Below, piece by piece: positions 896 through 36,443 of a stretch of 59,371 nucleotides of DNA. Position 1 is the first letter of the stretch. Each line of letters starts with the position of its first letter. The notes under the pieces were generated by a model, which was not told the DNA's origin, did not search any database, and saw only the letters and a list, made by a program, of their open reading frames with translations. The position numbers were made by a program, and so were the translations under genes. Source of the DNA: an archaeon (GTDB taxonomy: Archaea > Micrarchaeota > Micrarchaeia > Norongarragalinales > UBA97); the NCBI GenBank assembly GCA_020057405.1, contig JAGVFW010000007.1, positions 1 through 59,371 on the forward strand. Direction: 5' to 3'.

Positions 896-3800
896 TTAGC
901 TTTGGCTTGCGACAAAGTCGATAAAGCCGTTGTAGGTGTCGGCGATAATGCCGCTTGGTACGTGCAGGTCAAAGTAGTGCGTGCGGTTTGATGTCAACGC
1001 AACTGTCGCTACTGCGAGGTCATAAGACGAGTTTGGCGTGCTGTCGCCGCCGCGCTCGGTAAACGCCGTTTCGTCGGACATTGTGGTGTCCCAGGCGTAT
1101 TTGATGTTGTCAAAGGTGATGTTCCTGAAGTTTGGCGTAGGGCCAGTGAGGTTGGTATCCTGGTAGGTCATGTCGAGGACGGTGTTGCCCCAGTTAGTCA
1201 CGTTGAGGGATTGCGCCGTTGAGGTGCCGCCCGGGCTTATCGTGCCGAAGGCAACCGCCGACGGGTTGACGGTTATTGCGACGAGCGTGTTTACTGTTGC
1301 AGTCGTGGTTCTCGAAGCCGTGCTTGCGGCGGCGTCGCTTGCGTTAACCGTACACGACCAGCTGCCGGCAGGGTAGAAGTACCGCATTTGGAAGCTGCAG
1401 TTTGCAGTGCCGCCTGTCGAGTTGGCAGAAACGGTAGAGCAGCTGGCGTTGTAGATGCCGATGCGCTGGTACGACGCGTTGTAGAACGACAGCGTCACGT
1501 TTTTCAGGAAAGCCGAGTAGTTGCTTGAGGTGGCGTTGAAGCTCGCGCGGAACTGGGATATCTTGCCAACCGCTCCCGTTACCGAGGCATTGCCGTTGCC
1601 GTAGTACTCCTGCGTCCACGCGCTCCAGTTGCTTTCCTGTCCCGAGCCGTTTGAGGGCGCTCCCTGGCCGTAGAGTGCGGTGATTTCTGCCGCGGTGATG
1701 CTTCGGTTCCAAATCTTGACGGCGTCAATCGAGCCGTCCCAGTAGTTGTTGGAACTTCCGGTTATTTGCTGTGGCGAGCCTATGCGGACATTCACGGCTG
1801 GAACCGTAGTCCACGTGGCGTCAACGTAGGGTGTTGAGTTCACCAGGCTGCCATCAACATAGACGCTCATGTGCGTGAGGTTGTACTGCCCTACTATGAA
1901 GTGCCATAGGTTGTCGTTTATTGCAGGCCCTCCCGCCGCTATTTGGTAGACGGTGCCCGTGTAGGCCATGAATCCGGCCTTGAAACTCGAGTTCATCAAG
2001 AGGCCGCCGTAGACGTAGAAGTTGCCGGAGACTTCGCTGTTCGGTTGTCCAACTATAGCCTTGCTGCTGGCGACTGCCGAGCCCGTCTTGACCCAAGCTG
2101 CGTAAGTCACGCCGGACTGGTTGAACCATCCAGCTGGAATCGTAAGCGAAGTTAAGGCTATTTGTCGTTTTACCCCGCCAAAATCAAGGCACCGCCCAAC
2201 TACGCAGCTTGTAGTGTTGAGCGTCGGGAATAAGCTCGCGTTCGTGGTGTTGGCGAAAGTGGCAATATACCCTTTTCCGCTTAGGTCCAAGCTTTTCAAA
2301 GCTTCAGTCTCATTGCCGGAACTGTCGCCCAAGTCCCACCAACCAACAAGCTGCGAATCGTTGAACGTGTAGTTCTTGGCTCTGAAAGCGAGGCTCACGT
2401 TGGTGAAGTTGTGGATGAAGCCCTCGTTGCCGCGGTTGTCGCTGTTGTTCTCCCAAGCAATTAGTTGGCTTATTTCGCTTGATGTAAGGCTGCGGTTCCA
2501 GATGTGGAGCTCGTCAACCGAACCGTTGTAGAAGGATGAACTGGCGCCTCTGGCGCCAACGCTCAGCAGGTCTGAATTGTTGATGTCGCCCGCCATTATG
2601 GTAAAGTTGCCGCTGCCTACCATCGTTCCGTCAACGTAAAGCACTATAGACCTGTTGGTTAGTTGCGTTCCGTTGACAACGCCAGCAACGTGGTGCCAGC
2701 CTCCGCCGCTTATGTCTCCGCCAGTAACTCCGGGATTGAGCGTGCCGTTGTAAATTAAGAACCTGACTTGCCTCGCGCTTCCGGACGGTAGGCTTCTGAA
2801 TGCAAACGGGTATCCTCCGTTGCCCGCCCACTTTTCTACAAGCGCACCGTTTGTGGCACTCTGGTTGTCCTTTACCCAGAAGGCAATAGTGTATTCGTTC
2901 GTGCGGTTGAAGTTTAGTTCGCCGTTTTTCAACCGCAGGAACTGGTTAAAGCCGTTGAATTGGAAACAGCCGCCAATCTTGCAGGAATTGTTGAAGATGG
3001 GCGTTGCGGCAACCGTTCCGTTTCCAAGCGAACCCGAGTTGTTGAATCGGCTGGAGTCTTTCGTGTCGTTCTCAAAATGCAAAGAAGCGATTACGACATC
3101 CTCTGCGTTCAAGCCCGCCGCCTCAAACCAGCTCCAGTTAGCCTGCGCTAGGGTGGTTCCCGAACTGGCGCCGCTTGGCCGAAGGGGTGTGCTGAAGTAA
3201 GTGCCGTTGGTGGGGGTGAATGAGTTTGACCGGTAGGGGCTAAACACGCTTGCGCTGTCGTTGACGACCGTGTTGTTCATCACGCCAAGCGACAAGTTGG
3301 CCGTCCCGTACGCGGATAGTTTAGTGTAGAGCGCGGTTTCCTCTAGGGTGCCGGAAGCGGTTGCGCTGCCAAAGCCGTTGAAGTCAATTAGCGTGGACCA
3401 GCAGGCGATAGACGTGTTGTCTGGCCCCGGGGTAAGGTCGATTGTCGCGGGGCCGACGGTGACTGACCCAAGATATAGCCCGTTGTTTGAGAAAGTAATC
3501 CACACCGTCTGGCTGGCGTTCATCGTCGCGTTTGTCGTATTCGTGTTCGAGTAGTTGACTGCAGTGAGCACGTGCGGAGTGTAGTTGGCGTTCACCGTGT
3601 TGTTGCCGATAAACTGCGTGACTGTGAACCAGCCGGTCACGCCAGTCGAGTCGGTAACAAGATTGCTGAGCAGCGGGTTCGTCGTCGCCGAAGTGGCGTT
3701 GGTGATGTTGACATAAGCGCCCGGAATCACGGTGTAGTTGCTCCAGGTGACGTTCGCGCGAACGAACCAGTCTATCGTTAGGTTGTTGTTGGCGCTGACA

Positions 3801-6800
3801 TCCCAGAGGACCGCGCTTCGGTTAAACGTCGTGTTAAGCAGCCGCAGGTCGGAACTTGTGGACATGTTGATGTCGAAGTAGCCCGCGTCGCAGCCCGCGG
3901 TGCAGTAGTTGATGGTGCCGTTTATGAACTGGTTACCAAGCGCGTTGTCCGCCTTGATGCCGCCGGCCCGCGATGTTATTGTCGTATTGGTGAAGTTAGT
4001 TGCATAGGCGTCCTGCATGTACACGCCGTACGCACCAGTGCCGTTTGTGGAGATGGCGTTGCCGGTGAAGTTGATGTCGGCCGGCGGGAAGGTTCCCGTC
4101 TGTCCGTATATGCCGTGTGCCGAAGTGCCGTTAGTCAGGATGTTGTTGTAGGAATAGTTCACGAACTGCTGGGCGCTTCCAAGCGAAGTTAGGTAAATGC
4201 CATAGCTGCTGGTGCCGAAAGTCTTGAGGTAGTTGTAGCTGATGTTGTTGTTGGTGCCGTCCTGCCCGTGGAGGGCAGTGGCAGACGTTCCGTTGGTGAT
4301 GAGGATGTTGTATTCCGCCACGTTGTCGCTGTTGCCGCTGGTGCATTTGGACAGGGCCAGCGCGTTTGCGGAGGAGCCGTTGGTGTAAATCGTGTTGTTG
4401 GAGAGTATGCCGTTAGTTGACCCGCAGTCTGAAATTCCGTTTGACGAGGTGCCGTTGGTGACAATCGTGTTTTCGGTGATTATTGGCGTGCTTTGGCTAC
4501 TTGCTATTGAAATGCCGTTTGAGTTGTCTCCCCACGTCGTTATTGAATTGCGGGTGACGTTGAACATCATGCCGACCGAAGAACTGCCAGTGGCGATGCC
4601 GGGTGCGCTTGCTCCCCGCGTTACGATGGTGTTACCCGTGACGTTCGCCTTCGCGTTTGTCGGGAAGAGTATGCCGTTTGCGGAGGAGCCGTTGGTGGTA
4701 ATCGTGTTGCTGATTATCCAGTTGTTCAGTGAGCTTATGCCGACGTTTATTCCGACCGCGTTCGAGCCGTTGGTGTAAAGCGTGTTCGCGGTGATGTTGG
4801 TAGAGTTGGTTGTCCTAAGGCCGATTGCGGGCGAACGCGAGCCGTTTGCAGTAAGCGTGTTTGCGAAAATGGTGACCGAACTGGAGTTGGTGATGTTTAG
4901 CGCACCTGCAGTCGTGCCGTTGGTGACAACCGTGTTTAGCGTGATGTTGAGCGTACGGGTATTGTTGAACAGGATGCCAATCGAGCTGGCGCCGTTTGTC
5001 AAAATCGTGTTGTTGCGTATCGTCAGGTTAATCGCGATGTTGTTTCCCGTGCCGTTCAAGTAGATGGCGCTTGAGTTCTGGCTGGTTCCGTTCTGGACGA
5101 ACGTGCACCCTCGGATGGTGATGTTGTCAAAGCCCTCGGCGCTGAAGTTCACGCCCAAGCCGATGCCGGTCTGGGCGTAGAAGACGTTGTACCCCAGGCA
5201 GTCTAGCGTGACATTGGGGCTGGTGATGGTAAAGCAGTTGGCGTCTGAAGCTACGTCGGTTGTGAGCGTGTAGAGCGAGTTTTCAGCCTCCTCTGCCCCC
5301 CGATAGGCAAGCGCTCCGCAGGTTTGTGATGTTGCGGGAGTGACCTGCGTCAGGGCCACCCAGACGGTCTGAGACCGGTTGACTGTCGCGTTAGTGCCGT
5401 TAAACTGCCACGTGCCCTGCGAGTAGTTGGTTGCGGAGAAGTTGTGCGGCGTGTAAGTGACGTTGGCCGTGTTGTTGCCGAAGAATTGCGTTACGACCCA
5501 CCAGGGAGTTGCGCCGTCAGCGCCCGCGACGAGGTTGAGGAACATCGGGTTTGTCGTCGCGCTCGTCGCGTTTGTGACATTGACGTTGGCGCCGTTGATT
5601 GGCGTGGAATTCGTCCACGTTACGTTCGCCCGCGCGTACCACTGGATGGTCAGGTTGTTTGCCAATCCGGCTCCCCAGTTGATGGCGCTTTGGTTGATTG
5701 TCGTGTTAAGCAGCCGCAGGTCCGAGTTTCCAGTCAGGTTTACGTCAAAGTAGTTCGCGTCGCAGCCGGCAGTGCAGTAGTTGATGGTGCCGTTGACGAA
5801 CTGGTTGGCGTACGAGCCGTTTGACGCAATTGCTCCGGCCCGCGATGTTATCGTGGTGTTTGTGAAGTTGACTGCCGTTGCCCTCTCGAGCAGGATGCCG
5901 TAAGCGCCAGTTCCGTTGGTTGAGATTGCGTTGCCGGTGAAGTTTATTATCCCGACCGTGCCGCTTGAGGCGGCCACGTAAATGCCGTGCGCGTAAGAGT
6001 CGTTGGTCAGGATGTTGTTGTAGGAGAAGTTGACGAAACCCTGCGTGGTTGTCCGAATGACGTAAATTCCGTAGCTTTGGCTGCCGAAAGTCTTGATGTA
6101 ATTGTAGCTGACGTTCACTCCGCTTCCGTCGGATTCGTAAATTCCCTGGGAGCCGGTCGCGTTTAGCTTGATTTGGTTGCCCTCGATTGCCATGAGCGTG
6201 TTGCCGGAGATGCTTGTGAAAGACTTGATTGCTATGGCGTTCGTGCCGTTTCCTTGGATGGTGTTGTTGTTTATGATTCCTCCATCCAATTGTGCAACCG
6301 AGATTCCAATCGAGCCCGTGTTGTTGAGGAAGATTGTGTTTTCAGTAATGTACTTGACTGTCGTAGTGCCGCCGCCGCTGATGCCGGTTTCACTTGTGCC
6401 CAACAACGTAATTCGGTTACCAGTTATGTTGCCTGCCACGTTGATTCCGCCCGCGGTGGCACCCCGGAGTACTATGGTGTTCGAAGTAGCATTTACGACG
6501 CCAGTGTAAGCCCCAGAAATTGCCGAGCCACCCGAGCCATTTGTGCTAATTACGTTTCCTGTTACGAACATCGTGGTGCCCGTGTTTCCATTCGATATGG
6601 TAATTGCCGCGGCGCCGGTTGAGTTGATGTCGATAGTGTTTCGTGATATGTTAACGGCCCCGAAGCCTACCGTGCCTCCGGCCGATATGTATATTCCGTA
6701 GATGGTAGGCGAATTCGAGCCGTTTATCCGGATTGTGTTGCCGGTGATGTTTTCGCCAGTGGCATACATGCCGAATTGAATTCCGGTGGATGTATTCGAC

Positions 6801-9800
6801 ACTATGCTGTTGCCGGTGATGTTCGTGTAGTTGTTGCTGGTTTTGAAATAGATGGGGACTGCGTTTGTCGCGTTTGTCGTCATCACGTTGGTTGCAATCC
6901 AGATGTAGGATGAGTTTGAATAGTTTAGTGCAACGGCCCCCCAGCCGGTTGTCGTGAAAATGTTGCCCGTGACGTTCGTCTGGTTTGAATTTTCAATCTG
7001 AACGCCGACCGACTGGAGCGAGTTGGTCCTGAACGAGTTGTTGTAGATTGTTATGTTCTTTGAGGCATCTGTTGGCGTGCCGTTGAAGTAAATGCCGGTC
7101 GAGTTGGCCGATGTGGAGTTCTCCCAGAAGTTGCATCCCTGCACAGTGATGTTGTCAAGGCCGGTTGTGCTGAAGTTGGCCCCCATGCCGGTTCCCGATT
7201 GAGCGTAGTAGACGTTGTATCCGAGGCAATCGAGCGTAATGTTCGGAGTGGTGAAGGTAAAGCAATTGCCGGCCGAGGCAACGTCGTTTGATAGGGTGTA
7301 GAGTGAGTTTAGGCCGCGTTCGGCGCCGTGGTAGGCTAGGGCGCCGCAGGAGGAGGGCGTGGTTTGCGAGAGGGTAATCCAGACGGTCATGCTCGCATTC
7401 ATGGTGGCGTTCGTATTGTTCAACTGCCACGCGGACTGCGAGTAGTTCACGACCGTGAAGTTGTGGGGCGTGTAGCTGAAGTTGGCCGTGTTGTTGCCTT
7501 CAAACTGCGTAACTAGCGACCAGGCGGTCGCGCCGTCGGAACCGACGAGAAGGTTCGCGTGCATTTGGTTTCCTGCAGCGCTTGTGGCATTGGTGATGTT
7601 TACCCGGGCCCCGACTATGGGTGTGTAGTTGGTCCAGGTGACGTTCGCCCGCGCGTACCACCGGATGGTCAGGTTGTTCTTTGTGCCGGAGCCCCAGCTT
7701 ACTGCACTCTGGTTGAATGTTGCGTTCACCGCGGTTAGGTTTGAATCGTATTCAAGGATGAAGTCGGCGTAAGTCGATGCGCATGCGCCGCACCTTATTA
7801 TCGAGTCCATTTCCAGCGTGTTGTTGCGGGAGCTCCTTGTGGAGTTGACTCCGCCGGAGTTGGCTTGCATGGTGTTCAAGCTAGAGTTGGTGCCGTTGCT
7901 TGCGAAGAGCAGGAGTGCAAAGGCAGCTGAACCCGTGGCGTTGAGCGTGTTTGATCTGATTATCGCGAAATTGGAGTCGCGGGCGTAGAGCGCCGAGCTT
8001 TCGGCGCCGTAGGTTCTAACGCGGTTAAACGTGATGTTGTTGAGTGGCGCTGTCGTCAGGTTGATGCCGCTGGAGTTGACGCCGGTCGTGTTTATCGTGT
8101 TGCCAATCACTACGTTGCCGGTTGCAGAACTCCCGAGCAGCACGATGCCGGAGGACAGGTTGCCGGTGGTGTTGATTGTGTTGGACTGGAGGATGTTGTT
8201 GTTGCCTTGAACTAGGATGCCGTGGCCGAGCGTGCCGGTGGTGTTTATTGTGTTGAAGCGGATGGTGTTGTTGTTAGCGCTGGTCCTCAGCCATATTGGA
8301 TGCCCTATGTTTCCAAAAGCAGGGCTCGCCGTGTCGAAAACAAGGTTGTATTCAAAAGTGTTGTTGATGACGGCCTGCCCGCCGGTTTGATATCCGTTTG
8401 TCGAGCCTCCGGTAACGGTAATGTTATTGGCGCGGAATGTGTTGCCGTAAGCGGTGCCGCCGTAGCCGATTGCCGAATAGCCTGCAAACAAGTCCATGAT
8501 GTTGTTGGACGCGAAGAACGTGTTGTGGACCGCCTCCAGCTCAAGGGCGACCTCGCCGGCTATGTGCGTTACGTTGTTGCTCGACATGTTCGAGTTTGAA
8601 ACGAAGGTCATGAGGACGTTGAACGTGCGGAAGGGCCAGTCGCCGTTGGAGACCAGCGTGTTGTTGTATATTGTGATGTTGTTGGAGTAGTCGCCGGAAG
8701 CCCCGGTTATGTTGAGGGCGGTCGTAATATTCATTACACTGCTGTTGGCATCGAAGATGCAGCCCCTTATCGTGACATTGTCAAGGCCCAATGTGCTGAA
8801 GTTGACGCCGGAGCCGTTCAGCGTCTGGGCGTACCTTATCCTGTGCCCAAGGCAGTCTAGCGTGACATTGTTTCCTGCGATGGTGTAGCACGTGCCTGCT
8901 GCAGTGAGGTCGGCGCCGACGGTGTAAAGGGTGTTCCAGCCGTCAGTGGCTCCGGTGTAGTAAAGGGGTCCGCAATTCGTGGTGGGCACTGAAGACAGCG
9001 TAATCCATACCGTCTGGGTCGAGGTGACGCTCGCGTTGGTGGAGTTGAAGTTGCTTATCGTCCCTGCCGTGAGGTTGTAGGCGGTAAAGTTGTGCGGCGT
9101 GTAAGTGACGTTGGCCGTGCTGTTTCCAATAAACTCGGTTACGAGGAGCCATCCGGTGGCGCCGGTTGAGTCCGCCGGCTGGTTGAAGTGCAGCGGGTTT
9201 GTGGCCGGGTTCGTCGCGTTGGTGACATTGACGAAGGCGCCGACTATCGGCGTGGAGTTAGTCCAAGTCACATTCGCGCGGGCGTACCATTTCTGCGTTA
9301 TGGCATTGGCGGTGCCGAATTGGTAGCTTATTTTCTTCGGCGGAATTTCGGTGTTGATCTGGGTGGTGGTGTTCGTCAGGGTGGCGTTTGAATCAAGCGT
9401 TACGGCTACGCTGACTCCGCTTGTAATGCTCCCGATTTTTATCGTGTCGTTGGTGAACGTGCTCAGTCTCGAGTTGGTGAGGTTTAGCATAGTGGACTTT
9501 CCGTTGCCGTCAATGACATCGTATGACGAGGCGGTGTAGTTGCTTCCGTTTAAGTAAAGCGAGTAGGGCCCGATTGCCCCAGGCCTGAACGTGTTGTGCG
9601 AGAGGGTGTTGTTCAGCGAGTTGTAGAAGTGCGCGGCGTGGGCTTCGCCGGTGCCGGCGGTTGTGACTGTGTTGTTGGTGTAGTTGCCGTAGTGGCTTGC
9701 GGAGGCGTAAATGCCCATCGCTTGGGCGCCGTAGGTGTAAACTGCGTTTTCGCTCACGTTGCTGCCATCTGCAGCTCCAACTCCGGAGTTGCCGTCGATG

Positions 9801-12800
9801 TAGACGCCGTGGGCGGTAGTGCCGCTGGTGTTGACCGCATTGTCAGTCACGTTGGCCCAGTTCGCGGCGGCTAGATAGATGCCGTGGGAAGTCGAACCCG
9901 TGGTGTTGACGGAATTTCTCCACACGACCGTGCTGTCAACGGTTCCGCCTTGGTTTTCTATCCTGATGCCGGTGCCGGTTGCGCCGAAAGTGGAGACTAC
10001 GTTGCTCTGGATTGTGTTGCTGTTGCAGTTGCCGCCGTCGCTTGCGCAACTAACCCCTATGCCATAGCCCGTGGTTGCGTTGTTTTGGACCAGGTTGTTT
10101 TCAATTATGTTGTTTTGTACCGCGGGACCGCCGAATGCGTAAATCCTGATGCCGGCGAGGCTCGAGGCGTTTGCGTATACGGTGTTTCGAGACACCAGCT
10201 GCGAGCTGGAATCGCCTATTTGGATTCCATCCCCGCTCTGCGTTCTGACCGTGTTGAAGCTGAAGTTGTTAACGGTGCTGAGGGAATTTCCGTAAATTCC
10301 GTAGGCGATGCTTCCGTTGGTGCCTATAGTGTTGAAGTCAACCGTGTTGCTGCCGGCCTGATAGAGTTGTATGCCATAACTGCTGGTGCCGTTGGTATAC
10401 ACTGTGTTTGATGTGACGTTGCTGGCAAACGAGCTGGACAGCAAGATGCCGTTTGAGGCTTCACTGATAGAGCCGTTGATGTTTATGGTGTTGAGCGCAA
10501 TCCTCTCAAGGTAGCCCTGGTGGATGTAGGCTGCCGTCGAGGTGTTCAAAATGAAGACATTGGACGAGAGGTTGGTGTTGTTCGTCGTTTGCAGGTAAAC
10601 ACCGTATGCCCCTGTCGCGTTTGTGGTAATCGTGTTGTTGGAGATTGTAAGCGAGCTTGAGTTGGTGACGTTGACTGCATGAGCGGAGGCGCCGTTGGTG
10701 TAGATTGAGCTTTTGGATATGTTGACCGTAAGCGTGTTATTCAGGTAGATTCCCGACGCGCCGGCTCCGTTTGTTACAATGCTGTTGTTGAATAGGGTTA
10801 GGTTTGTCGCCTTGTTCGCGGCGGTGCCGTTAAAGTAGAGTGCTGGGGAGTTGCTGGCTGCCGAGTTGTTGCTGATGAAGTTACACCCCCGTATCGTGAC
10901 GTTGTCGAGGCCGGTTGTGCTGAAGTTGACGCCCATGCCCGGACCGGCCTGGCCGTAGTAGACGCGGTGGCCAAGGCAATCGAGAGTTACGTTCGAAGTT
11001 GTGATTGTAAAGCAGTTGGCGGATGCAGCGATGTCGGCACTAAGGGTGTAAAGCGAGTTGAGGCCCTCCTCGGTTCCCCTGTAGGCAAGCGAGTCGCAGT
11101 TGGTGTGCGTTATGGACGACATCGTAATCCAGGCGGTCTGGCTGGAGTTGATTGTCGCGTTGGTGGAGTTGAAGTTGCTTATCGCGCCTGATGTGAGGTT
11201 GTAGGCAGTGAAGTTGTGGGGTGTGAAGCTCGTGTTGACGGTGTTGTTGCCGAAGAATTGCGTTACGGTCCACCACGGCGTTGCGCCGTCAGTACCTGCA
11301 ACTAGGTTGGCAAACATCGGGTTTGTCGCCGGATTCGTCGCGTTAGTGATGTTGACTAGCGCGCCGACTATTGGCGTGGAGTTCGTCCAGGTGACGTTCG
11401 CGCGGGCGTACCAGTCGAGCGTCAGGTTGTTTCCAGTACCCGCTCCCCACGTCACTGCGCTTCGGTTGAAGGTGGTGTTAAGCAGCCGCAGGCCGGAATT
11501 GCCTGACAGGTTGAGGTCAAAGTAGGCGGCGTCACAGCCTGAAGTGCAGGGTGTTATTGAGCCGTTGACGAACTGGATTGAGGCCGAGCCGTTGACCGCA
11601 AGCGCCCCTCCGCGAGAAGCTATCGTGGTGTTTGTGAAGTTGACTGAAGTCGCCTTCTCGATGAGCACTCCGTAAGCGCCTGTTCCGTTTGTCAAAATAG
11701 TGTTGCCGGTAAAGTTCACTTTTGCAACTACGCTTGAGATGTAAATGCCGTGGGCGTAGGAGCCGTTTGTCAGGATGTTGTTATAGGAGAAGTTTACGAA
11801 ATTCTGCGTGGTGGTTCCCGACACGTAAATTCCGTAACCCTGGGTGCCGGATGTCTTGATGTAGTTGAAGCTTACATTCACGTTTGTGCCGTCAACCTCC
11901 CTTATGCCGACGGCGCTCGTGCCGTTTGAGATAATTACGTTGTTGTCAATGCGGTTGTTCGCATTACCGCCAAGGGCCCAACTAACGCTGATTCCATTGT
12001 TTGACGTGCTGTTAGTGTAGATTGTGTTGTTCGAGATGATGACGTTGCTAATTGCGCTCAGGGAAATTCCGTTTCCCGAGCCGTTAATTACGATTGTATT
12101 TCCAGAAATCCAGCCGCCTGCCATGCCGTTTGATGAGGCAAAACCGCTGCCGCCGCCCCAGGTTGTTATCGAGTTTCCCGTGACATTTACCGAAGCAGCT
12201 GCAGATATTCCCGCAGCCGTGCCTCTGGCAACTAGCGTGTTGCCCGTGATGTTGGCGTTGGCGGTTGATGCAACGCTAATCGGGTTTCCCGAGCTATTTG
12301 TCCGCAGCGTGTTGCTTTGGATGAATAGGTTTTGGTTTGAGCCAGAGAAAATTACTGCATATGCCGCAGTCCCGTTCAGGTCAATCGTGTTTTCGGAGAC
12401 GTTTAGGAAGCCAAAGGCCGTGACGGTTTGAATGCCGTTTGACGAAGTTCCATTTGTTACTATTGTGTTCTTGGAAACGTTTTGGTTTACCGCATAGGCG
12501 GCGAAGTAAATGCCGGTTGAGGTGTTGGTATTGATTACGTTGCTCGTAATATTGGAGAAGTTGCTGTTGAGCACGAAAATACCGTAGGCGTTTGAGGCGT
12601 TTGTCGTCATCACGTTAGTTGCAATCCACGAGTAGGTGGAGTTGGTCAGGTTGATGGCATGGGCTGTTGAGCCGTTTGCGGTAAAAGTGTTGCCAGTGAT
12701 GTTCGTCTGGTTGGCTGTTGCAACCTGCACGCCGACTGACCGAAGCGAGTTGGTCCGAAACGAGTTGTTGTAGATTGTGAGGTTGAGTGCCAGCGTGCTA

Positions 12801-15800
12801 GGGCTGCCGTTGAAGAAAATTCCGCTTGAGGCGGTTGACGCAGTTCCGTTCTCCCAGAAGTTGCACCCGCGGACGGTGATGTTGTCGAGGCCGGTTGTGC
12901 TGAAGTTGGCCCCCATGCCCGGGCCGGCTTGGGCGTAGAAGATGTTGTACCCGCCGCAGTCAAGGGTGACGTTCGAGGTGGTGAAGGCAAAGCAGTTGGC
13001 GTTGTTTGCCACGCTCGTGTTTAGTTGGTAGAGTGAATTCCACCCGTCCTGCGCTCCGCGGTAGGAGAGCGCCTGGCAACCGGAAATTGCGTATGCGTTG
13101 GTCGTGGTGAGCGTGAAGATTGGCGTCACGTTCATCGCGATTTCATTGTCCCAGACGTAAACTCTCCAGCGGAGTGTCGCGCCCGGCGTGGAGTTTAGCA
13201 CTGCAGTCATGTTCGTCTGGTTGACTGTGCCGTTGAGGGCGGCGTTTACCGTCACGTTGTAGAACGTGCCGTTGCCGTTGTCAAACTCAAACGAGTAGTT
13301 CATCAGCTGGATGTCGTCCGTCCAGTTGACGATGAACTTTGTCGACTGGCCGGCTTGAGCCCCATCAGTGCGGTTGTTCGACCACTGGGGCGGCTGGGCG
13401 GTGGCGTAGCTGACGTCGAGGTACGGCCTCCAGCCGGGCGTGGCGTGGTCGCCGGCCGCCCACGAGCCGTTTAGGGAGCCGGCTCCGCTGCCGCTTACGT
13501 TGAAGCCGACTTTGAACAGGTCGTCGCCTGCAGCAACGCTACTGATGTTCAATAACGCATTGGCGTTCATGGTGAAGTTAACGAGTCCGCTTGCGGTTTT
13601 GCAGAGGGTGCTCTGGTTGTACAGCGTGCCGTTGTTGATGTCGGCCCACAGCAGCGTGTTGCCGGCAGTGTTGTCGCCGTAGGCACTCACATTCGCGTTA
13701 AGCTCGTTGAACGCGCAGCGTGGCGCCTGAGTCGTTGGGTTGAGATAAATGGTTATGTTAGCTGCCGAGATGCTCGCGCCGCTGGGTATGGTGCTGACGT
13801 TGAAGACCAGGAACGCAAGAAAGTTTGATTCTTCAGACGCGCCGCAGGCAAGGGACCAAACATCGAACCCATTCAAATTGGTGTTAGTGTGCCTGATGTA
13901 GGCGCTGGCGTCGCAGGCTATGCCGATGTGGCCGTCGGAAGTGCCGGTGGTGTTGGTGTAGAAGCGGACGGTCGTCGGCTGTGAGGTGGGGTACGCGCCG
14001 TGGTACTGCAGCTGGACTGTTTGGCTTGAGGTGAGGGAGAAGTTAGTCGTATTATAGTAAGTCAGGTTGAACCACGAGAAGTTGTAGGGCGTGTAGTTGA
14101 TGTTGGTTGCGGCGTTGCCGATTGATTGCGTGATGAGTAGCCAGCTTGTGAGGCCGCTTGAGTCGGTCACCTGGTTTAGGTACATCGGGTTGGTGTTGAG
14201 GCCCGAGGCGTTTGAGACATTCACGCGCGCGCCGGGGATGAGCGTGCCGTTGTCAAAGCTCGCGTTCGCCCGCACGTACCACTGGATTGTCAGGTTGTTG
14301 CCACTGCCAGCTCCCCACGCGACTACCGACTGCGAGAAAGTCGTGTTCTTCACCGTCAGGTTCGAGCTGTCGCCAAGGAACAAGTCATCAGTGAGGCTTG
14401 CGCAGCCGGAACTGCAGGTGTTGATGACGCTATTGTTCATCAAAGTCAGGCGCGAGTTGCTCGCGTTGAAGCCCGCCTGCTTGTAGGTGACAGTCAGGTT
14501 CTCGAATGTCGTGTAGTTGGTCGCGTTGAGGAACACGCCTGTCGACGTGGTTGCCGAGACTGTTGCCACGTCGCTTGTAATCGTGGCGTTAGTGCTGTTG
14601 ACTAAGATTAGGCCGTGGGAAGTTGCACCCGACGTTGTGTAGTTGTTTGCAGATGCAGTCAAGCCCGCAATGTCAGTTAGCACGGCGGCGTGCGAGCTGG
14701 ATGTCGTCGTCATCACCGCGTTATTAAGCAGCGTGAGGTTGCCCGCCGGGTTGCCCGTGCCCGAGCCGTTAAGGTAGATTGCGGGCGAGCCGGTGCTCGA
14801 CGAGTTTTGGAAGAACTTGCAGTTCTTTATCGTCACGTTGTCCCAGCCCGTGGCGCTGAAGTTGATGCCAACGCCGGGGTTGCTCTGGCCGTAGAAGATG
14901 GAATAACCTGCGCAGTCTAAAGTCACGTTCGCCGAGCCAATGGTGAGGCAGTTGCTAGCGCCGAACATGCTCTGGTTTACACTGTAAAGCGAGTTCCATC
15001 CCGCGCCACTCGTAGGGCCGTTGTATGCAACCGTTTGGCAACTGCCGACCGTGCCGCCGCCCTCGGGCGCGCCTGCAGTGTAGCGTACGATGAGCCTTGG
15101 TTTCCAGGCGGCGGTTGCGCTTTCACTTGAGGAGATTAAGCCGATTACCATGGTGTTTCCGTCCTGGCTTGAGTTGATGCCGAGCCGGAACAAGTTGTTG
15201 CCCGTCAGGACGCTTTGTATGTCCGTTAGCGCCTGTGCGGTGAGCGTGACGTTCTTCAGGCCGGTTGAGGTGCACCAGTTACTGTAATTGTAGGCCGTGC
15301 CGTTGTTCATGTCAGCAAAGAATGCCGCGTTGCCGGCTGCATTGTCGGCGTAGTCGCTTGCATTGGCGTCAAGGGGCATGATTCCGCAGTTGTTATTGCC
15401 AACCCCGGTTTCCACGTAGGCGGTCAGGTTTACCTCGTTTATTGTTGACGTGCTCGGAATGTAGGTGGTGTTGAAGATTATCCATGCCCGATAGTTGACG
15501 GGGCCGGTATCACAGGGCGGCACCATCGTGCTCTTGCCGATGCTCAGCGTGCTTCCGGAAGTGGTGCGCGTGTAGGTGGGGCACTCGTCGTCGCCGATGT
15601 GCCCGTCGCTGGTGCTCGTCTGGTTGATGTAGAGCCCTATCGTGGGGTCGATTGTGACAGGGTACTGGCGGCCCGCGTCTGCAAGCCAAATTGGGTCGGC
15701 GTTCACGGTGATGCGCTTGCCGTTGCCCGAGAGCGTCATCGTCACTGCGTTTGAGAATGCGCCTGCGGCGTCTGTCATGAATGGTGCTTGCGCCACGAAG

Positions 15801-17683
15801 ACGGGAGCGCTCGAGCGGCTGTCCGTAAAGAGTATGTCGTTGCCCGACTGCTCGGCGTCAAGGTTGCGCGTGTTGATGTTGTAGGTGAAGGTGGTCGGGG
15901 CCTGGACGGTATTGAGGATGATTTCCTCCTTTATGCCCGCGCTCGTGCTGGTCAGCTTGAGGTCGGTGTTTGCAAAGGCAGTGGCGTATGTTACGCTGTT
16001 TGCGTCTGAAGCGGCGATTGCGCTGTTGCGGGCACCCACGAGCTTGAATTCCACGCGGGCATCTCCCGCCTCGATTTCGTAGTCCGTGGGGCTTGCAAGG
16101 TCGCCTGAGAAAGTGCCCTTGACCTTATTGGCTTTGGTGCGCAGTTTCTGGCCGACTTGCTCTAGCGCCGTGTCAATCTCTACGAGCTGGCCGTTTTCCT
16201 CGAAAAATAGGTCGCCGGAAGAGATTTCGGCTGTTATCGAGCCGTCGTCGTTGAGGAAATGCCTAGAGAACTTGCTGCGTTTTTCAACAAGCTCGCGCAG
16301 GCGCTTTACTGCTTTCTTTTCGTCCTTCGCGAGCTTCTTTCTCAGCTTCTCGCTGGAGACGAAGGTGAATACGTCTGTCGCATTCCAGTTGCCGTAGGAG
16401 TCGTTTGCGAAGACGCGCCAGCGCGAGGTGCCGTTGGCGGTGACGGCCTTCGAACGGCTGCTGTAGTTTGCAACGCCGTTCATCTCGGTCCAAGAGTCGT
16501 TGGAAAAGTTGCCATTGCCATCGTCAAACTCGAGGATAAAGCCCGAAAGGCTCGTGTTGTCCACCCAAAAGACGGAGAACGTAGTAAGCAGAGACTTGTC
16601 GTCCTCAGTTGTCGTGTTTTCAAACCATTTTGGCGCCTCGGTATCAAAAGGCAATGGCGTCGGGGTCGCGGTTGCTTGCGGGGCCGGCGTTAGCACGAGC
16701 TTGCGGACGCCTAACTTCACCGCGTCAAGGGCCAGCAGGACTTTTGGAAGCTGCGTGCTTGCGACGAGCTTGAATTTCATCGGCGCTGCAATCATGCCAA
16801 GCGTGTCCGCGTTTGCAGTGCATTCTTGGGTCTCAAGTTGCCCGCCGATTTCAATTCCGGGGCAAACGAGAGTCCACGTGTTGTCAATGAGTGCATACAC
16901 GTCAACAGTTGCCGCAGCTGAAGCGCTTTGGAAGAACACCGCGCGCGGGCCCGACGAGAAGTTGCCACCCGGAGTAGGCGTCGGGGTTGGAGTAGGTTCG
17001 GGCGTGGGTTCCGGCGTCGGCGTTTCAGCCGGCTGCGGAGTCGGCGTTATCTCCGGCGTTGGCTCGGGAGTCGGCGTCTCAGTAGCTTGCGGCGTCGGAG
17101 TAATTGTTTCGTTAGTCTCATTCGCCGCCGGCGTCGGGGTGATAGTTTCATTTGTTTCATTGCCAGCGGGCGTCGGGGTTATTGTTTCGTCAACCACATT
17201 CACGCCGCCAGCTTGCGGCGTCGGAGTAGCAGGTTCGACACTCGCCTCGACGCTTGGCTCCGGGGTTATTGTTTCATTCGCTTCCGGCGTCGCCTCAAGC
17301 ACCTCTGCCGCCGAGGCGGTTATCGCGATGGTAAACGAACTCCAGTCCTCCGGCGCTTCGCTTGCATTAAACTCGAGCTCAATTGAAGTCTGGTTCGGCG
17401 TTGCAAGCGGCAAGTCGGCGGTAATGCCGTCCTCCTCGTAGACCTGCAAAGTTATGACCGACGGCACAACGCCTGCGACGACTGCACTGTCAAGCGACAT
17501 CATCATAGCGCCGCCAAAGCCGCCGAAAAGAACGCCCGTAATTTCCTGGCTCAAAAGCCAGCCGAGCAGCACGAGCACAGTGGAGACTACGACTACGGTA
17601 GTTAAGGAAACTAGCCAGTCAGGCCTTTCCTTCCCTCCTCTCGACGCACCGCTAGTAGCGATGCTGGATGCCCTGCCGTGCAT
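896..17683 (-). CDS. Giant modular surface protein with DNRLRE-like, beta-helix and LamG domains
   Basis: One uninterrupted frame encodes about 5,595 aa. I start it at the ATG at 17683, since a TATA box lies 30 nt upstream; an in-frame TTG at 17701 is the alternative. Order: transmembrane anchor (residues ~22-50); Pro/Thr-rich stalk (~128-234); Fn3-like segment (~348-428); a region ending in a YPVTIDPT motif (~676) as found before DNRLRE domains; DNRLRE-like modules (~681-874 and ~1231-1431); six right-handed beta-helix blocks, each opening with a conserved Cys-containing segment (...LDCxGYxxxYAQ...) and closing with a WYxRANVTW cap domain; two LamG/concanavalin-like domains (~4861-5078, ~5108-5338); a C-terminal Ig-like domain. 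It is very rich in Asn-X-Thr/Ser sequons. There is no C-terminal anchor, so it probably projects outward from the N-terminal membrane segment. An adhesin or carbohydrate-binding role is inferred. Confidence 0.93.
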   Translation of the reverse strand: MHGRASSIATSGASRGGKERPDWLVSLTTVVVVSTVLVLLGWLLSQEITGVLFGGFGGAMMMSLDSAVVAGVVPSVITLQVYEEDGITADLPLATPNQTSIELEFNASEAPEDWSSFTIAITASAAEVLEATPEANETITPEPSVEASVEPATPTPQAGGVNVVDETITPTPAGNETNETITPTPAANETNETITPTPQATETPTPEPTPEITPTPQPAETPTPEPTPEPTPTPTPTPGGNFSSGPRAVFFQSASAAATVDVYALIDNTWTLVCPGIEIGGQLETQECTANADTLGMIAAPMKFKLVASTQLPKVLLALDAVKLGVRKLVLTPAPQATATPTPLPFDTEAPKWFENTTTEDDKSLLTTFSVFWVDNTSLSGFILEFDDGNGNFSNDSWTEMNGVANYSSRSKAVTANGTSRWRVFANDSYGNWNATDVFTFVSSEKLRKKLAKDEKKAVKRLRELVEKRSKFSRHFLNDDGSITAEISSGDLFFEENGQLVEIDTALEQVGQKLRTKANKVKGTFSGDLASPTDYEIEAGDARVEFKLVGARNSAIAASDANSVTYATAFANTDLKLTSTSAGIKEEIILNTVQAPTTFTYNINTRNLDAEQSGNDILFTDSRSSAPVFVAQAPFMTDAAGAFSNAVTMTLSGNGKRITVNADPIWLADAGRQYPVTIDPTIGLYINQTSTSDGHIGDDECPTYTRTTSGSTLSIGKSTMVPPCDTGPVNYRAWIIFNTTYIPSTSTINEVNLTAYVETGVGNNNCGIMPLDANASDYADNAAGNAAFFADMNNGTAYNYSNWCTSTGLKNVTLTAQALTDIQSVLTGNNLFRLGINSSQDGNTMVIGLISSSESATAAWKPRLIVRYTAGAPEGGGTVGSCQTVAYNGPTSGAGWNSLYSVNQSMFGASNCLTIGSANVTLDCAGYSIFYGQSNPGVGINFSATGWDNVTIKNCKFFQNSSSTGSPAIYLNGSGTGNPAGNLTLLNNAVMTTTSSSHAAVLTDIAGLTASANNYTTSGATSHGLILVNSTNATITSDVATVSATTSTGVFLNATNYTTFENLTVTYKQAGFNASNSRLTLMNNSVINTCSSGCASLTDDLFLGDSSNLTVKNTTFSQSVVAWGAGSGNNLTIQWYVRANASFDNGTLIPGARVNVSNASGLNTNPMYLNQVTDSSGLTSWLLITQSIGNAATNINYTPYNFSWFNLTYYNTTNFSLTSSQTVQLQYHGAYPTSQPTTVRFYTNTTGTSDGHIGIACDASAYIRHTNTNLNGFDVWSLACGASEESNFLAFLVFNVSTIPSGASISAANITIYLNPTTQAPRCAFNELNANVSAYGDNTAGNTLLWADINNGTLYNQSTLCKTASGLVNFTMNANALLNISSVAAGDDLFKVGFNVSGSGAGSLNGSWAAGDHATPGWRPYLDVSYATAQPPQWSNNRTDGAQAGQSTKFIVNWTDDIQLMNYSFEFDNGNGTFYNVTVNAALNGTVNQTNMTAVLNSTPGATLRWRVYVWDNEIAMNVTPIFTLTTTNAYAISGCQALSYRGAQDGWNSLYQLNTSVANNANCFAFTTSNVTLDCGGYNIFYAQAGPGMGANFSTTGLDNITVRGCNFWENGTASTASSGIFFNGSPSTLALNLTIYNNSFRTNSLRSVGVQVATANQTNITGNTFTANGSTAHAINLTNSTYSWIATNVMTTNASNAYGIFVLNSNFSNITSNVINTNTSTGIYFAAYAVNQNVSKNTIVTNGTSSNGIQTVTAFGFLNVSENTIDLNGTAAYAVIFSGSNQNLFIQSNTLRTNSSGNPISVASTANANITGNTLVARGTAAGISAAASVNVTGNSITTWGGGSGFASSNGMAGGWISGNTIVINGSGNGISLSAISNVIISNNTIYTNSTSNNGISVSWALGGNANNRIDNNVIISNGTSAVGIREVDGTNVNVSFNYIKTSGTQGYGIYVSGTTTQNFVNFSYNNILTNGSYAHGIYISSVVAKVNFTGNTILTNGTGAYGVLIEKATSVNFTNTTIASRGGALAVNGSASIQFVNGSITPCTSGCDAAYFDLNLSGNSGLRLLNTTFNRSAVTWGAGTGNNLTLDWYARANVTWTNSTPIVGALVNITNATNPATNPMFANLVAGTDGATPWWTVTQFFGNNTVNTSFTPHNFTAYNLTSGAISNFNSTNATINSSQTAWITMSSITHTNCDSLAYRGTEEGLNSLYTLSADIAASANCFTITTSNVTLDCLGHRVYYGQAGPGMGVNFSTTGLDNVTIRGCNFISNNSAASNSPALYFNGTAANKATNLTLFNNSIVTNGAGASGIYLNNTLTVNISKSSIYTNGASAHAVNVTNSSSLTISNNTITTNATGAYGVYLQTTNNTNLSSNVFILNTSTAAYIHQGYLERIALNTININGSISEASNGILLSSSFASNVTSNTVYTNGTSSYGIQLYQAGSNTVDFNTIGTNGSIAYGIYGNSLSTVNNFSFNTVRTQSGDGIQIGDSSSQLVSRNTVYANASSLAGIRIYAFGGPAVQNNIIENNLVQNNATTGYGIGVSCASDGGNCNSNTIQSNVVSTFGATGTGIRIENQGGTVDSTVVWRNSVNTTGSTSHGIYLAAANWANVTDNAVNTSGTTAHGVYIDGNSGVGAADGSNVSENAVYTYGAQAMGIYASASHYGNYTNNTVTTAGTGEAHAAHFYNSLNNTLSHNTFRPGAIGPYSLYLNGSNYTASSYDVIDGNGKSTMLNLTNSRLSTFTNDTIKIGSITSGVSVAVTLDSNATLTNTTTQINTEIPPKKISYQFGTANAITQKWYARANVTWTNSTPIVGAFVNVTNATNPATNPLHFNQPADSTGATGWLLVTEFIGNSTANVTYTPHNFTAYNLTAGTISNFNSTNASVTSTQTVWITLSSVPTTNCGPLYYTGATDGWNTLYTVGADLTAAGTCYTIAGNNVTLDCLGHRIRYAQTLNGSGVNFSTLGLDNVTIRGCIFDANSSVMNITTALNITGASGDYSNNITIYNNTLVSNGDWPFRTFNVLMTFVSNSNMSSNNVTHIAGEVALELEAVHNTFFASNNIMDLFAGYSAIGYGGTAYGNTFRANNITVTGGSTNGYQTGGQAVINNTFEYNLVFDTASPAFGNIGHPIWLRTSANNNTIRFNTINTTGTLGHGILVQGNNNILQSNTINTTGNLSSGIVLLGSSATGNVVIGNTINTTGVNSSGINLTTAPLNNITFNRVRTYGAESSALYARDSNFAIIRSNTLNATGSAAFALLLFASNGTNSSLNTMQANSGGVNSTRSSRNNTLEMDSIIRCGACASTYADFILEYDSNLTAVNATFNQSAVSWGSGTKNNLTIRWYARANVTWTNYTPIVGARVNITNATSAAGNQMHANLLVGSDGATAWSLVTQFEGNNTANFSYTPHNFTVVNYSQSAWQLNNTNATMNASMTVWITLSQTTPSSCGALAYHGAERGLNSLYTLSNDVASAGNCFTFTTPNITLDCLGYNVYYAQSGTGMGANFSTTGLDNITVQGCNFWENSTSANSTGIYFNGTPTDASKNITIYNNSFRTNSLQSVGVQIENSNQTNVTGNIFTTTGWGAVALNYSNSSYIWIATNVMTTNATNAVPIYFKTSNNYTNITGNSIVSNTSTGIQFGMYATGENITGNTIRINGSNSPTIYGIYISAGGTVGFGAVNISRNTIDINSTGAAAITISNGNTGTTMFVTGNVISTNGSGGSAISGAYTGVVNATSNTIVLRGATAGGINVAGNITGNRITLLGTSETGISGGGTTTVKYITENTIFLNNTGSIGISVAQLDGGIINNNTIQGNGTNAIAIKSFTSISGNTLMAIEGNQIKLNATGSQGIYESDGSGVNVSYNYIKTFGSQSYGIYVIRTTTQGFVNFSYNNILTNDSYAHGIYVAASSGTVGIINFTGNAISTNGTGAYGILLERATAVNFTNTTITSRAGAIASNGSYANQFVNGTINYCTAGCDANYFDVNLTGNSDLRLLNTTINQSAINWGAGLANNLTIQWYARANVTWTNSTPINGANVNVTNATSATTNPMFLNLVAGADGATPWWVVTQFFGNNTANVTYTPHNFSATNYSQGTWQFNGTNATVNRSQTVWVALTQVTPATSQTCGALAYRGAEEAENSLYTLTTDVASDANCFTITSPNVTLDCLGYNVFYAQTGIGLGVNFSAEGFDNITIRGCTFVQNGTSQNSSAIYLNGTGNNIAINLTIRNNTILTNGASSIGILFNNTRTLNITLNTVVTNGTTAGALNITNSSSVTIFANTLTANGSRSPAIGLRTTNSTNITANTLYTNGSNAVGINVGISSLNNWIISNTITTNGSSANGILFPTNAKANVTGNTIVTRGASAPGIATGSSSVGMMFNVTRNSITTWGDNSNGISIASSQSTPIITENTIVTNGTSSNGISDCGSTNGILSNNTIYTNGSSANALALSKCTSGNSDNVAEYNILITNGTSATALHGQDGTNNNISYNYLKTFGTSSYGIYLTSLGSAQQFVNYSYNNILTNGTSAHGIYGQTGTFPPADINFTGNAISTNGTGAYGVYMQDAYATNFTNTTITSRAGGIKADNALGNQFINGTINYCTAGCDAGYFDINMSTSSDLRLLNTTFNRSAVLWDVSANNNLTIDWFVRANVTWSNYTVIPGAYVNITNATSATTNPLLSNLVTDSTGVTGWFTVTQFIGNNTVNANYTPHVLTAVNYSNTNTTNATMNASQTVWITFSNNGLYLGSVTVGPATIDLTPGPDNTSIACWSTLIDFNGFGSATASGTLEETALYTKLSAYGTANLSLGVMNNTVVNDSASVFSPYRSNSFTPTNGTYFSTPLRPSGASSGTTLAQANWSWFEAAGLNAEDVVIASLHFENDTKDSSRFNNSGSLGNGTVAATPIFNNSCKIGGCFQFNGFNQFLRLKNGELNFNRTNEYTIAFWVKDNQSATNGALVEKWAGNGGYPFAFRSLPSGSARQVRFLIYNGTLNPGVTGGDISGGGWHHVAGVVNGTQLTNRSIVLYVDGTMVGSGNFTIMAGDINNSDLLSVGARGASSSFYNGSVDELHIWNRSLTSSEISQLIAWENNSDNRGNEGFIHNFTNVSLAFRAKNYTFNDSQLVGWWDLGDSSGNETEALKSLDLSGKGYIATFANTTNASLFPTLNTTSCVVGRCLDFGGVKRQIALTSLTIPAGWFNQSGVTYAAWVKTGSAVASSKAIVGQPNSEVSGNFYVYGGLLMNSSFKAGFMAYTGTVYQIAAGGPAINDNLWHFIVGQYNLTHMSVYVDGSLVNSTPYVDATWTTVPAVNVRIGSPQQITGSSNNYWDGSIDAVKIWNRSITAAEITALYGQGAPSNGSGQESNWSAWTQEYYGNGNASVTGAVGKISQFRASFNATSSNYSAFLKNVTLSFYNASYQRIGIYNASCSTVSANSTGGTANCSFQMRYFYPAGSWSCTVNASDAAASTASRTTTATVNTLVAITVNPSAVAFGTISPGGTSTAQSLNVTNWGNTVLDMTYQDTNLTGPTPNFRNITFDNIKYAWDTTMSDETAFTERGGDSTPNSSYDLAVATVALTSNRTHYFDLHVPSGIIADTYNGFIDFVASQS

Positions 17684-17709
17684 GGCACGAAAAGAAGGCA
17701 AAAGGGCAC

Positions 17710-17716
17710 TTAAATA
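17710..17716 (-). promoter_or_regulatory. TATA box of the giant surface-protein gene
   Basis: Read on the minus strand this is GTATTTAAG. It is centred about 30 nt before the ATG at 17683, the spacing expected for a leaderless archaeal transcript. It supports that ATG over the upstream TTG, which would lie before the predicted transcription start. Confidence 0.6.
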
Positions 17717-17743: not shown

Positions 17744-18595
17744 CTAGATGCTTTCAAGGACTGCCGCGAGTGCTAGTGCCGCTATGGAATTAAAGAGCAG
17801 AAGCCCGATGTCGATTGCAATGAGCTTGAACTGGGGTTTAGTGTGGTGCTTGTGCATAATCGCAACGCTAAGCACGCCCCCCGCAATCGCCGCGAGGAAA
17901 TACGCCCCGACTTCAAGCATGCCGTGCGGGAGGATGCGGATGAACACGCTGACGAACTCGCCAAAACCGAACTGCCTAAACTGCTCGCCGATGAAAATGC
18001 CAATGACGCTCGCATTCCACAAAAGCAAGTAGATGGCGCCGACCCCGTAGATGAAGCTGAAGAAGAACATGAACAGAAGCACGACCGTATTGTGTTCAAA
18101 GAGCTTCCAAGCCAGGCCGGGCTTGATCACGCGGCCGCTCACCTCGTAGATGCGCACGAAATTCTGGCCGTTCTCGTTAACCACTTCCGAGCGCGTGGTC
18201 TTGACAAACTCGACTCCAAGGCGCGAGATTTCCTGCTGCTGGGGCCCGAACACGGTTGCGCCAATGGCATCGGGAAGAAACGCGTACCAAAGCAGGTAGG
18301 CGACGAAAGCGCCGGCAAAAAAGAGGGAAAACACCTTCAAAAGCGGCAAGTGGTACTGCCACGCGCGCTTTTGCTCAAGAAGCGCGAGCCGCTTTTCCTC
18401 CTCGTCCTCCTCTTTTATCAAAAGCGAGAGGATAAGCGGGATTGCGGGCGCAAAAGCAAACGTGAGGGCCGCCCCAGCCAGATTGGGCAACGCGATGTTG
18501 ATGAGCACTGCCAAGGACACGAAAAGAACGGCGAGAAAGAAAATCAGGCTCGGCCGTTCCCTAGCGTAACTCGGGTCAACAATTTCCTCAAGCAT
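17744..18595 (-). CDS. SpoIIM/stage II sporulation protein M-like membrane protein
   Basis: This polytopic membrane protein of about 283 aa has hydrophobic helices near residues 15-60, 90-110, 165-195 and at the C-terminus. The segment ILPHGMLEVGAYFLAAIAGG matches the signature region of the SpoIIM family (PF01944), which is widespread in archaea and not tied to sporulation there. A charged Glu/Lys/Arg-rich cytoplasmic loop lies near residue 65. The start is the ATG at 18595, which has GAGGAG 9 nt upstream; an upstream TTG at 18619 is less likely. It lies directly upstream of the giant surface-protein gene in the same direction, but the TATA box between them suggests separate transcription. 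The molecular role of archaeal SpoIIM homologues is not established. Confidence 0.85.
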   Translation of the reverse strand: MLEEIVDPSYARERPSLIFFLAVLFVSLAVLINIALPNLAGAALTFAFAPAIPLILSLLIKEEDEEEKRLALLEQKRAWQYHLPLLKVFSLFFAGAFVAYLLWYAFLPDAIGATVFGPQQQEISRLGVEFVKTTRSEVVNENGQNFVRIYEVSGRVIKPGLAWKLFEHNTVVLLFMFFFSFIYGVGAIYLLLWNASVIGIFIGEQFRQFGFGEFVSVFIRILPHGMLEVGAYFLAAIAGGVLSVAIMHKHHTKPQFKLIAIDIGLLLFNSIAALALAAVLESI

Positions 18596-18780
18596 AGTCG
18601 CGGTCTCCTCGCCACGCAAATAAATGCGGTGTAGTTAATAAAGAAAACGCAAGGACGACCGCACTTTGCGACGAAAAGGCTCGGCGCCCATTGCAGGAGC
18701 AGAATTGCCAGTTCGGCGCCCTTTTAAATCCGGCCTGATTTAAATAATCCGAGCGTCTTTTATTGTGTTGGTGAAGTTAG

Positions 18781-33906: not shown

Positions 33907-33959
33907 CTTCTCACTCACGAGGGCAATTACCGAGCCAGCGAATTTAACGGTTTGCAACG

Positions 33960-36362: not shown

Positions 36363-36443
36363 AGGCAGGAAATTTCCCGAAGCGGGAGTTGCGGGAACGC
36401 CGGTAAATTGACATTATTAAGCGTTGGCCGAGAAAAAACTTTC

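What the first reader, a model, noticed from the sequence alone, without database searches (positions are those of the whole stretch)
896..17683. 5,595-aa surface protein with six repeated beta-helix/cap modules
A single gene takes up over a quarter of the window. Six blocks share the opening Cys segment and the closing WYxRANVTW cap but differ greatly inside, with extreme density of N-glycosylation sequons. The repeats suggest growth by duplication and possible recombination. In a small-genome archaeon such a protein probably mediates contact with a host or partner cell.
Basis: partly seen in the sequence, partly recalled or inferred. Interest (0 to 1): 0.7.

Follow-up and report, generated by a model that had tools for sequence, protein, structure and literature searches.

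The report
Giant glycosylated archaeal beta-helix surface protein
A small-genome archaeon carries one 5,595-residue gene for a long, membrane-tethered rod of six repeated beta-helix modules studded with sugar-attachment sites, most likely a surface adhesin or coat protein; related giants occur across its phylum, so it is a fine but not unprecedented example.

Summary
One minus-strand frame (ATG 17683 to stop 896, 5,595 aa) contains six modules, each opening with a four-Cys head, continuing as a 25-residue-period right-handed parallel beta-helix, and closing with a ~100-aa WYxRANVTW domain. That "cap" is a transthyretin/CnaB-like beta-sandwich. Collapsed repeats did not create the frame: no exact repeat reaches 35 bp. 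The six closing domains plus a one-module paralogue (1,020 aa) form a supported clade apart from relatives, so the modules multiplied within this lineage; synonymous positions are near saturation, so the duplications are old, with no sign of recent recombination. Sequons look selected: 283 in the modules against 133±9 by chance, and Asn and the +2 Ser/Thr are kept or lost together (odds ratio 27; 1.2–1.8 at other offsets). The genome encodes AglB with WWDYG. Elsewhere: one N-terminal membrane segment, a Pro/Thr linker, Ig-like and DNRLRE-like parts, two C-terminal LamG domains. Best reading: a tethered, heavily N-glycosylated stalk-type adhesin/coat protein (contact role inferred). Same-phylum genomes have comparable 3,700–5,638-aa giants, one also with six caps; methanogen adhesin-like proteins share the architecture. 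New member of a known kind.

The parts
896..17683 (-). Giant surface protein gene, 5,595 aa from ATG 17683 (frame open to TTG 17701)
17709..17716 (-). TATA-like box TATTTAAG, centred ~29 nt upstream of the ATG (leaderless transcript suggested)
   Evidence: sequence shown; inference
17552..17617 (-). N-terminal membrane segment (aa 29-50), the strongest hydrophobic stretch; signal anchor
   Evidence: Kyte-Doolittle 2.28; inference
17076..17190 (-). Pro/Thr-rich linker with a 39-bp tandem repeat, 2.9 copies
   Evidence: sequence
16352..16645 (-). Ig-like domain (aa ~353-450), 42% identical over 92 aa to a stretch of the paralogue
13994..15040 (-). Module M1 (aa 888-1236), short beta-helix; closing domain 14006-14299
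13397..13960 (-). DNRLRE-like domain between M1 and M2 (below curated cut-off)
   Evidence: E 4e-4, 20.4 bits vs 34
13079..13390 (-). Ig-like domain before M2, shared with the paralogue
11099..13078 (-). Module M2 (aa 1542-2201); closing domain 11123-11431
8975..11098 (-). Module M3 (aa 2202-2909); closing domain 8999-9307
7349..8974 (-). Module M4 (aa 2910-3451); closing domain 7373-7678
5321..7348 (-). Module M5 (aa 3452-4127); closing domain 5357-5659; structure predicted
3452..5320 (-). Module M6 (aa 4128-4750); closing domain 3494-3787
2468..2938 (-). First LamG / ConA-like lectin-fold domain (Laminin_G_3)
1712..2374 (-). Second LamG-like domain (approximate limits)
   Evidence: two stretches
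896..1294 (-). C-terminal beta-rich domain; no C-terminal membrane segment
   Evidence: resembles by eye the C-termini of G047 proteins; no Pfam hit for this stretch

Best explanation
A membrane-tethered, heavily N-glycosylated stalk-type surface protein. An N-terminal membrane segment holds it in the membrane; a flexible Pro/Thr linker carries it through the envelope; about 115 beta-helix rungs in six rods (roughly 55 nm at 0.48 nm per rung, inferred) joined by beta-sandwich domains project it outward; sequons on the rods are modified by AglB, making a stiff, sugar-coated shaft; the distal LamG lectin-fold domains and/or the rod grooves bind glycans of another cell or a surface. Module number grew by duplication inside this lineage. 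Shown: frame, modules, predicted fold, selection on sequons, lineage-specific duplication, AglB present. Inferred: topology, actual glycosylation, binding and its target.
For: Beta-helix: 25-residue periodicity, Pfam Beta_helix/NosD over cut-off, M5 model pLDDT 77, Z 26-29 to AlgE4, pneumococcal adhesin PfbA and NosD. Closing domain: matches of 77-91 residues to transthyretin-like, CnaB2 and SlaB S-layer domains, Z 8.4-10.3. LamG E 2e-42. Strong membrane segment only at the N-terminus. Sequons: N with S/T at +2 in 0.52 vs 0.21-0.31 at other offsets; S/T kept 81% in sequons vs 49% elsewhere; co-retention odds ratio 27 vs 1.2-1.8, also 17 in head+cap and 23 in helix interior. AglB with WWDYG. 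Six caps plus own paralogue one clade 99/97, six alone 93/93. Giants in the phylum. Charge-poor modules, 7% DEKRH.
Against: No binding partner, host or glycan is known; LamG and beta-helix folds also occur in enzymes and structural coats. No covalent or C-terminal anchor. Models rest on 5-6 rows, the closing domain with pLDDT 50-85 in parts. The sequon comparisons are not independent and composition alone gives part of the odds ratio (about 4 from the baselines). Genome is 90.6% complete.
Confidence: 0.62

Rival explanations
1. It is mainly a structural coat (S-layer or glycocalyx component) of the cell itself, not an adhesin: rods pack on the surface and carry a dense glycan layer.
For: Sequon density 6-8 per 100 aa in the modules and selection on sequons; closing domain resembles an SlaB S-layer domain; weak, sub-threshold hit of one part to the ArtA-dependent S-layer glycoprotein.
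Against: Distal LamG lectin-fold pair; six rods of unequal length do not suggest a regular lattice; related giants vary widely in size and module number and were not found in many relatives, unlike an essential lattice protein.
Confidence: 0.22
2. It is a secreted or tethered polysaccharide-degrading or -modifying enzyme; each beta-helix is a lyase/epimerase/hydrolase unit.
For: Many of the best fold matches are carbohydrate enzymes and phage tailspikes.
Against: No DPH-type motif anywhere; modules only 7% charged; invariant columns across modules are mostly structural N/G/C/T, not a set of catalytic acids or lysines; a shared fold shows no function.
Confidence: 0.1
3. The frame is an assembly artefact joining several genes.
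For: It comes from a 17-contig draft assembly and contains repeats.
Against: Longest exact repeat <35 bp, even codon-position GC, no stop in 5,601 codons; independent genomes carry similar giants.
Confidence: 0.02

Closest known systems
Adhesin-like proteins (ALPs) of Methanobrevibacter smithii / Methanosphaera stadtmanae (PMC11532034)
   Same: Archaeal, membrane-anchoring segment, right-handed beta-helical domains (up to seven repeats in one protein), repeated beta-sandwich domains, occasional carboxypeptidase-regulatory-like domain; binding inferred only.
   Different: Here LamG and DNRLRE-like parts, a sandwich domain closing each helix, a fixed six-Cys pattern, very dense selected sequons; a different archaeal lineage.
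SPEARE proteins of Nanohaloarchaeota (PMC6642349)
   Same: Giant (up to 8,553 aa) extracytoplasmic proteins of small-genome archaea, at least one laminin-G domain; proposed host interaction.
   Different: No C-terminal membrane segment, no restriction-enzyme or protease domain found here.
NosD / PF13229-PF05048 beta-helix superfamily
   Same: Fold and profile match over cut-off.
   Different: No Nos ABC partners found among the neighbours scanned; used as a repeated surface module.
Other giants of the same phylum (G003 3,830 aa; G227 5,638 aa; G013 4,281 aa; G047 2,873 aa)
   Same: Same helix + closing-domain modules, high sequon density, in some a Pro/Thr linker; G227 also has six closing domains.
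   Different: G003 has a C-terminal membrane segment with a basic tail, G013 and G227 a charged tail; closing domains of G003, G047 and G013 branch outside the window's clade.
EtpA, ETEC beta-helix adhesin (PMC11463764)
   Same: Works-like analogy: elongated beta-helix with repeat modules and extensive N-linked glycans that binds glycans.
   Different: Bacterial two-partner secretion, another kind of N-glycosyltransferase; no homology claimed.

Membership tests
Archaeal adhesin-like proteins (RBH type) | membrane-anchoring segment | tested here: met
   single strong N-terminal hydrophobic segment, (hydropathy only)
Archaeal adhesin-like proteins (RBH type) | one or more right-handed beta-helical domains | tested here: met
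Archaeal adhesin-like proteins (RBH type) | repeated archaeal big (Ig-like) domains | tested here: inconclusive
   repeated beta-sandwich closing domain is transthyretin/CnaB-like; no ABD model available
Archaeal adhesin-like proteins (RBH type) | adhesion to other cells | not testable with these tools
   needs experiment
SPEARE proteins | at least one laminin-G domain | tested here: met
SPEARE proteins | cytoplasmic restriction-enzyme domain beyond a membrane segment near the C-terminus | tested here: not met
   no such Pfam hit; no C-terminal hydrophobic segment
SPEARE proteins | serine protease domain | tested here: not met
   no Pfam hit over the whole protein
PF13229 Beta_helix / PF05048 NosD | profile over gathering score and beta-helix fold | tested here: met
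   98 and 58 bits; Z 26 to NosD
NosD (copper ABC system) | NosF/NosY partners nearby | tested here: not met
   none among the 20 window proteins scanned
AlgE-type epimerase/lyase | DPH catalytic motif | tested here: not met
   no DPH in the protein
CnaB domain (closing domain) | beta-sandwich fold | tested here: inconclusive
   8bdw Z 8.5, 90 residues, rmsd 2.4; Z near the common background, Foldseek prob 1.00
CnaB domain (closing domain) | isopeptide-forming Lys | tested here: not met
   no invariant Lys in six copies
CarboxypepD_reg (PF13620) | profile over cut-off | tested here: not met
   best E 1.2 in one of six copies

The most novel reading that the evidence does not exclude
The protein is the main carrier of the cell's N-glycan layer, a modular glycan-presenting rod in which sequons are gained and lost as units and modules are multiplied lineage by lineage to set partner specificity in an otherwise reduced archaeon.
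Probability: 0.15. Interest if true: 0.6.

Novelty: new member of a known kind. Interest (0 to 1): 0.36.

Why it matters
It gives sequence-level evidence, without culture, that an uncultured small-genome archaeon really uses N-glycosylation: in duplicated modules the Asn and the +2 Ser/Thr are kept or lost together far more than at any other spacing. It also defines a recurring building block (four-Cys head, beta-helix, transthyretin/CnaB-like closing domain with no Pfam match) behind giant surface proteins of its phylum, candidates for how such cells touch partners.

Tried and rejected
Self-BLAST of the whole protein returned nothing usable, so modules were aligned directly. Recombination between modules: regional trees put M2 with M5 in the head (98%) and give no well-supported conflict elsewhere; same-codon fractions are near codon-usage expectation (0.49-0.60 vs 0.46-0.52), so no recent conversion. 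Viral or plasmid origin: no relative in viral contigs, phages or plasmids. Named relatives: only two far ones in genome contigs, whose SSU rRNAs are ~67% identical to the window genome's, so the phylum name was not established. SpoIIM gene as a functional partner: adjacent here and in G026 only, not in the other flanks examined. Pfam Toxin_R_bind_N over the LamG stretch is read as a lectin-fold cross-hit. NCBIfam TafC is far under its cut-off and lies on the LamG stretch.

Full report
Observation. The frame lies on the minus strand: 896..17701 without a stop, 5,601 codons from TTG, 5,595 from the first ATG at 17683. The window is the whole of a contig of a 1.22-Mb, 17-contig, 90.6%-complete genome with an archaeal SSU rRNA. 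The phylum name could not be established: the two named relatives found are MAGs labelled Nanoarchaeota and Nanoarchaeia, with SSU only ~67% identical.

Artefact check. No 35-mer is repeated within the gene, so repeat collapse or mis-joining through repeats is unlikely; codon-position GC is even along the frame.

Anatomy. An N-terminal membrane segment (aa 29-50) is the strongest hydrophobic stretch. A Pro/Thr-rich linker with a 39-bp tandem repeat follows, then an Ig-like part. Six modules come next: M1 is short and set apart from M2 by a DNRLRE-like and an Ig-like domain; M2 to M6 are head to tail. Each module has four Cys at fixed head positions and a Cys pair before the closing domain. Two LamG stretches and a beta-rich end complete the chain; there is no C-terminal anchor.

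Fold. The module interior shows 25-residue periodicity. Pfam Beta_helix and NosD match over cut-off. The AlphaFold2 model of M5 (pLDDT 77, pTM 0.76) is a right-handed parallel beta-helix, Z 26-29 to AlgE4, DFA-IIIase, the pneumococcal adhesin PfbA, NosD and tailspikes. A shared fold does not give function. It has no Pfam match over cut-off.

Origin of the modules. In a tree of 39 closing domains the six of this gene group together (93/93) and with the single copy of a 1,020-aa paralogue elsewhere in the genome (99/97, starred), apart from the three of the giant in a same-family genome. The modules therefore multiplied in this lineage after that split. At identical amino acids the codons agree hardly more than codon usage predicts, so the duplications are old; heads and caps are conserved by selection on the protein, not by recent conversion. 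Regional trees show no well-supported conflict.

Sequons. The modules and the short stretch between M1 and M2 hold 283 N-X-S/T against 133±9.4 in shuffles; Asn is followed by S/T at +2 in 52% of cases and at other offsets in 21-31%. Comparing modules, S/T in a sequon stays S/T in 81% of comparisons and elsewhere in 49%. If Asn is kept the +2 S/T is kept in 94%, if Asn is lost in 38%: odds ratio 27, against 1.2-1.8 at other offsets; 17 in heads and caps and 23 in helix interiors alone. Composition alone would give about 4 (baselines: 0.51 vs 0.21). The pairs are not independent, so no P value is claimed, but the specificity for +2 is clear. The genome has one STT3/AglB over cut-off with the WWDYG motif, beside a dehydratase-like sugar-nucleotide gene. 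Nine other window proteins have 0-0.8 sequons per 100 aa.

Distribution. The closing-domain profile hits 16 of 60 relatives, the module profile 76 of 295 genomes of the phylum, in frames up to 5,638 aa. G227 (same class, other family) has a 5,638-aa frame with six closing domains; G003 3,830 aa with three; others 3,700-4,700 aa. No viral, phage or plasmid relative was found.

Mechanism. A tethered, sugar-coated rod with distal lectin-fold domains is the most economical reading: about 115 rungs, some 55 nm of helix (inferred from module length over 25 and 0.48 nm per rung). Coat component and polysaccharide enzyme are the rivals; the latter is disfavoured by charge-poor modules without conserved catalytic residues. 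Binding, host contact and actual glycosylation are inferred.

Known kinds. By architecture it belongs beside methanogen adhesin-like proteins (PMC11532034), and by size and setting beside SPEARE proteins (PMC6642349), of which it lacks defining parts, and the giant proteins of Omnitrophota (PMC10066038). Verdict: real, ordinary for its kind, with an unusually clear selection signal on sequons.

Noticed in passing
window 17744-18619 (-) and L066: A SpoIIM-family membrane protein gene lies directly upstream of the giant gene; in relative G026 a SpoIIM gene also directly precedes a 1,979-aa module-bearing frame. Not seen in the other flanks examined.
   Followed up: partly
window 29891-33957 (-): Cluster with NiFe-hydrogenase large subunit, 20-kDa Oxidored_q6 subunit and Fer4_22 protein, like a cytosolic sulfhydrogenase (group 3b-like) set.
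   Followed up: no
L034 (G000:C5:50292-51572): AglB/STT3 with intact WWDYG motif and a Pro/Thr/Ser-rich tail, next to an RmlB-like nucleotide-sugar dehydratase.
   Followed up: partly
L028, minus-strand frame 3123-6182 counted on the reverse complement: 1,020-aa single-module paralogue with a signal-like N-terminus in the same genome, a convenient small stand-in for structural work.
   Followed up: partly
window 36408-38444 (+), 43405-44898 (-), 23978-24925 (-): Large frames without any Pfam match; 43405-44898 starts with a signal-like segment.
   Followed up: no
window 20850-22424 (-): Site-2-protease-like M50 peptidase with PDZ domain next to acylphosphatase, CBS and HTH genes.
   Followed up: no
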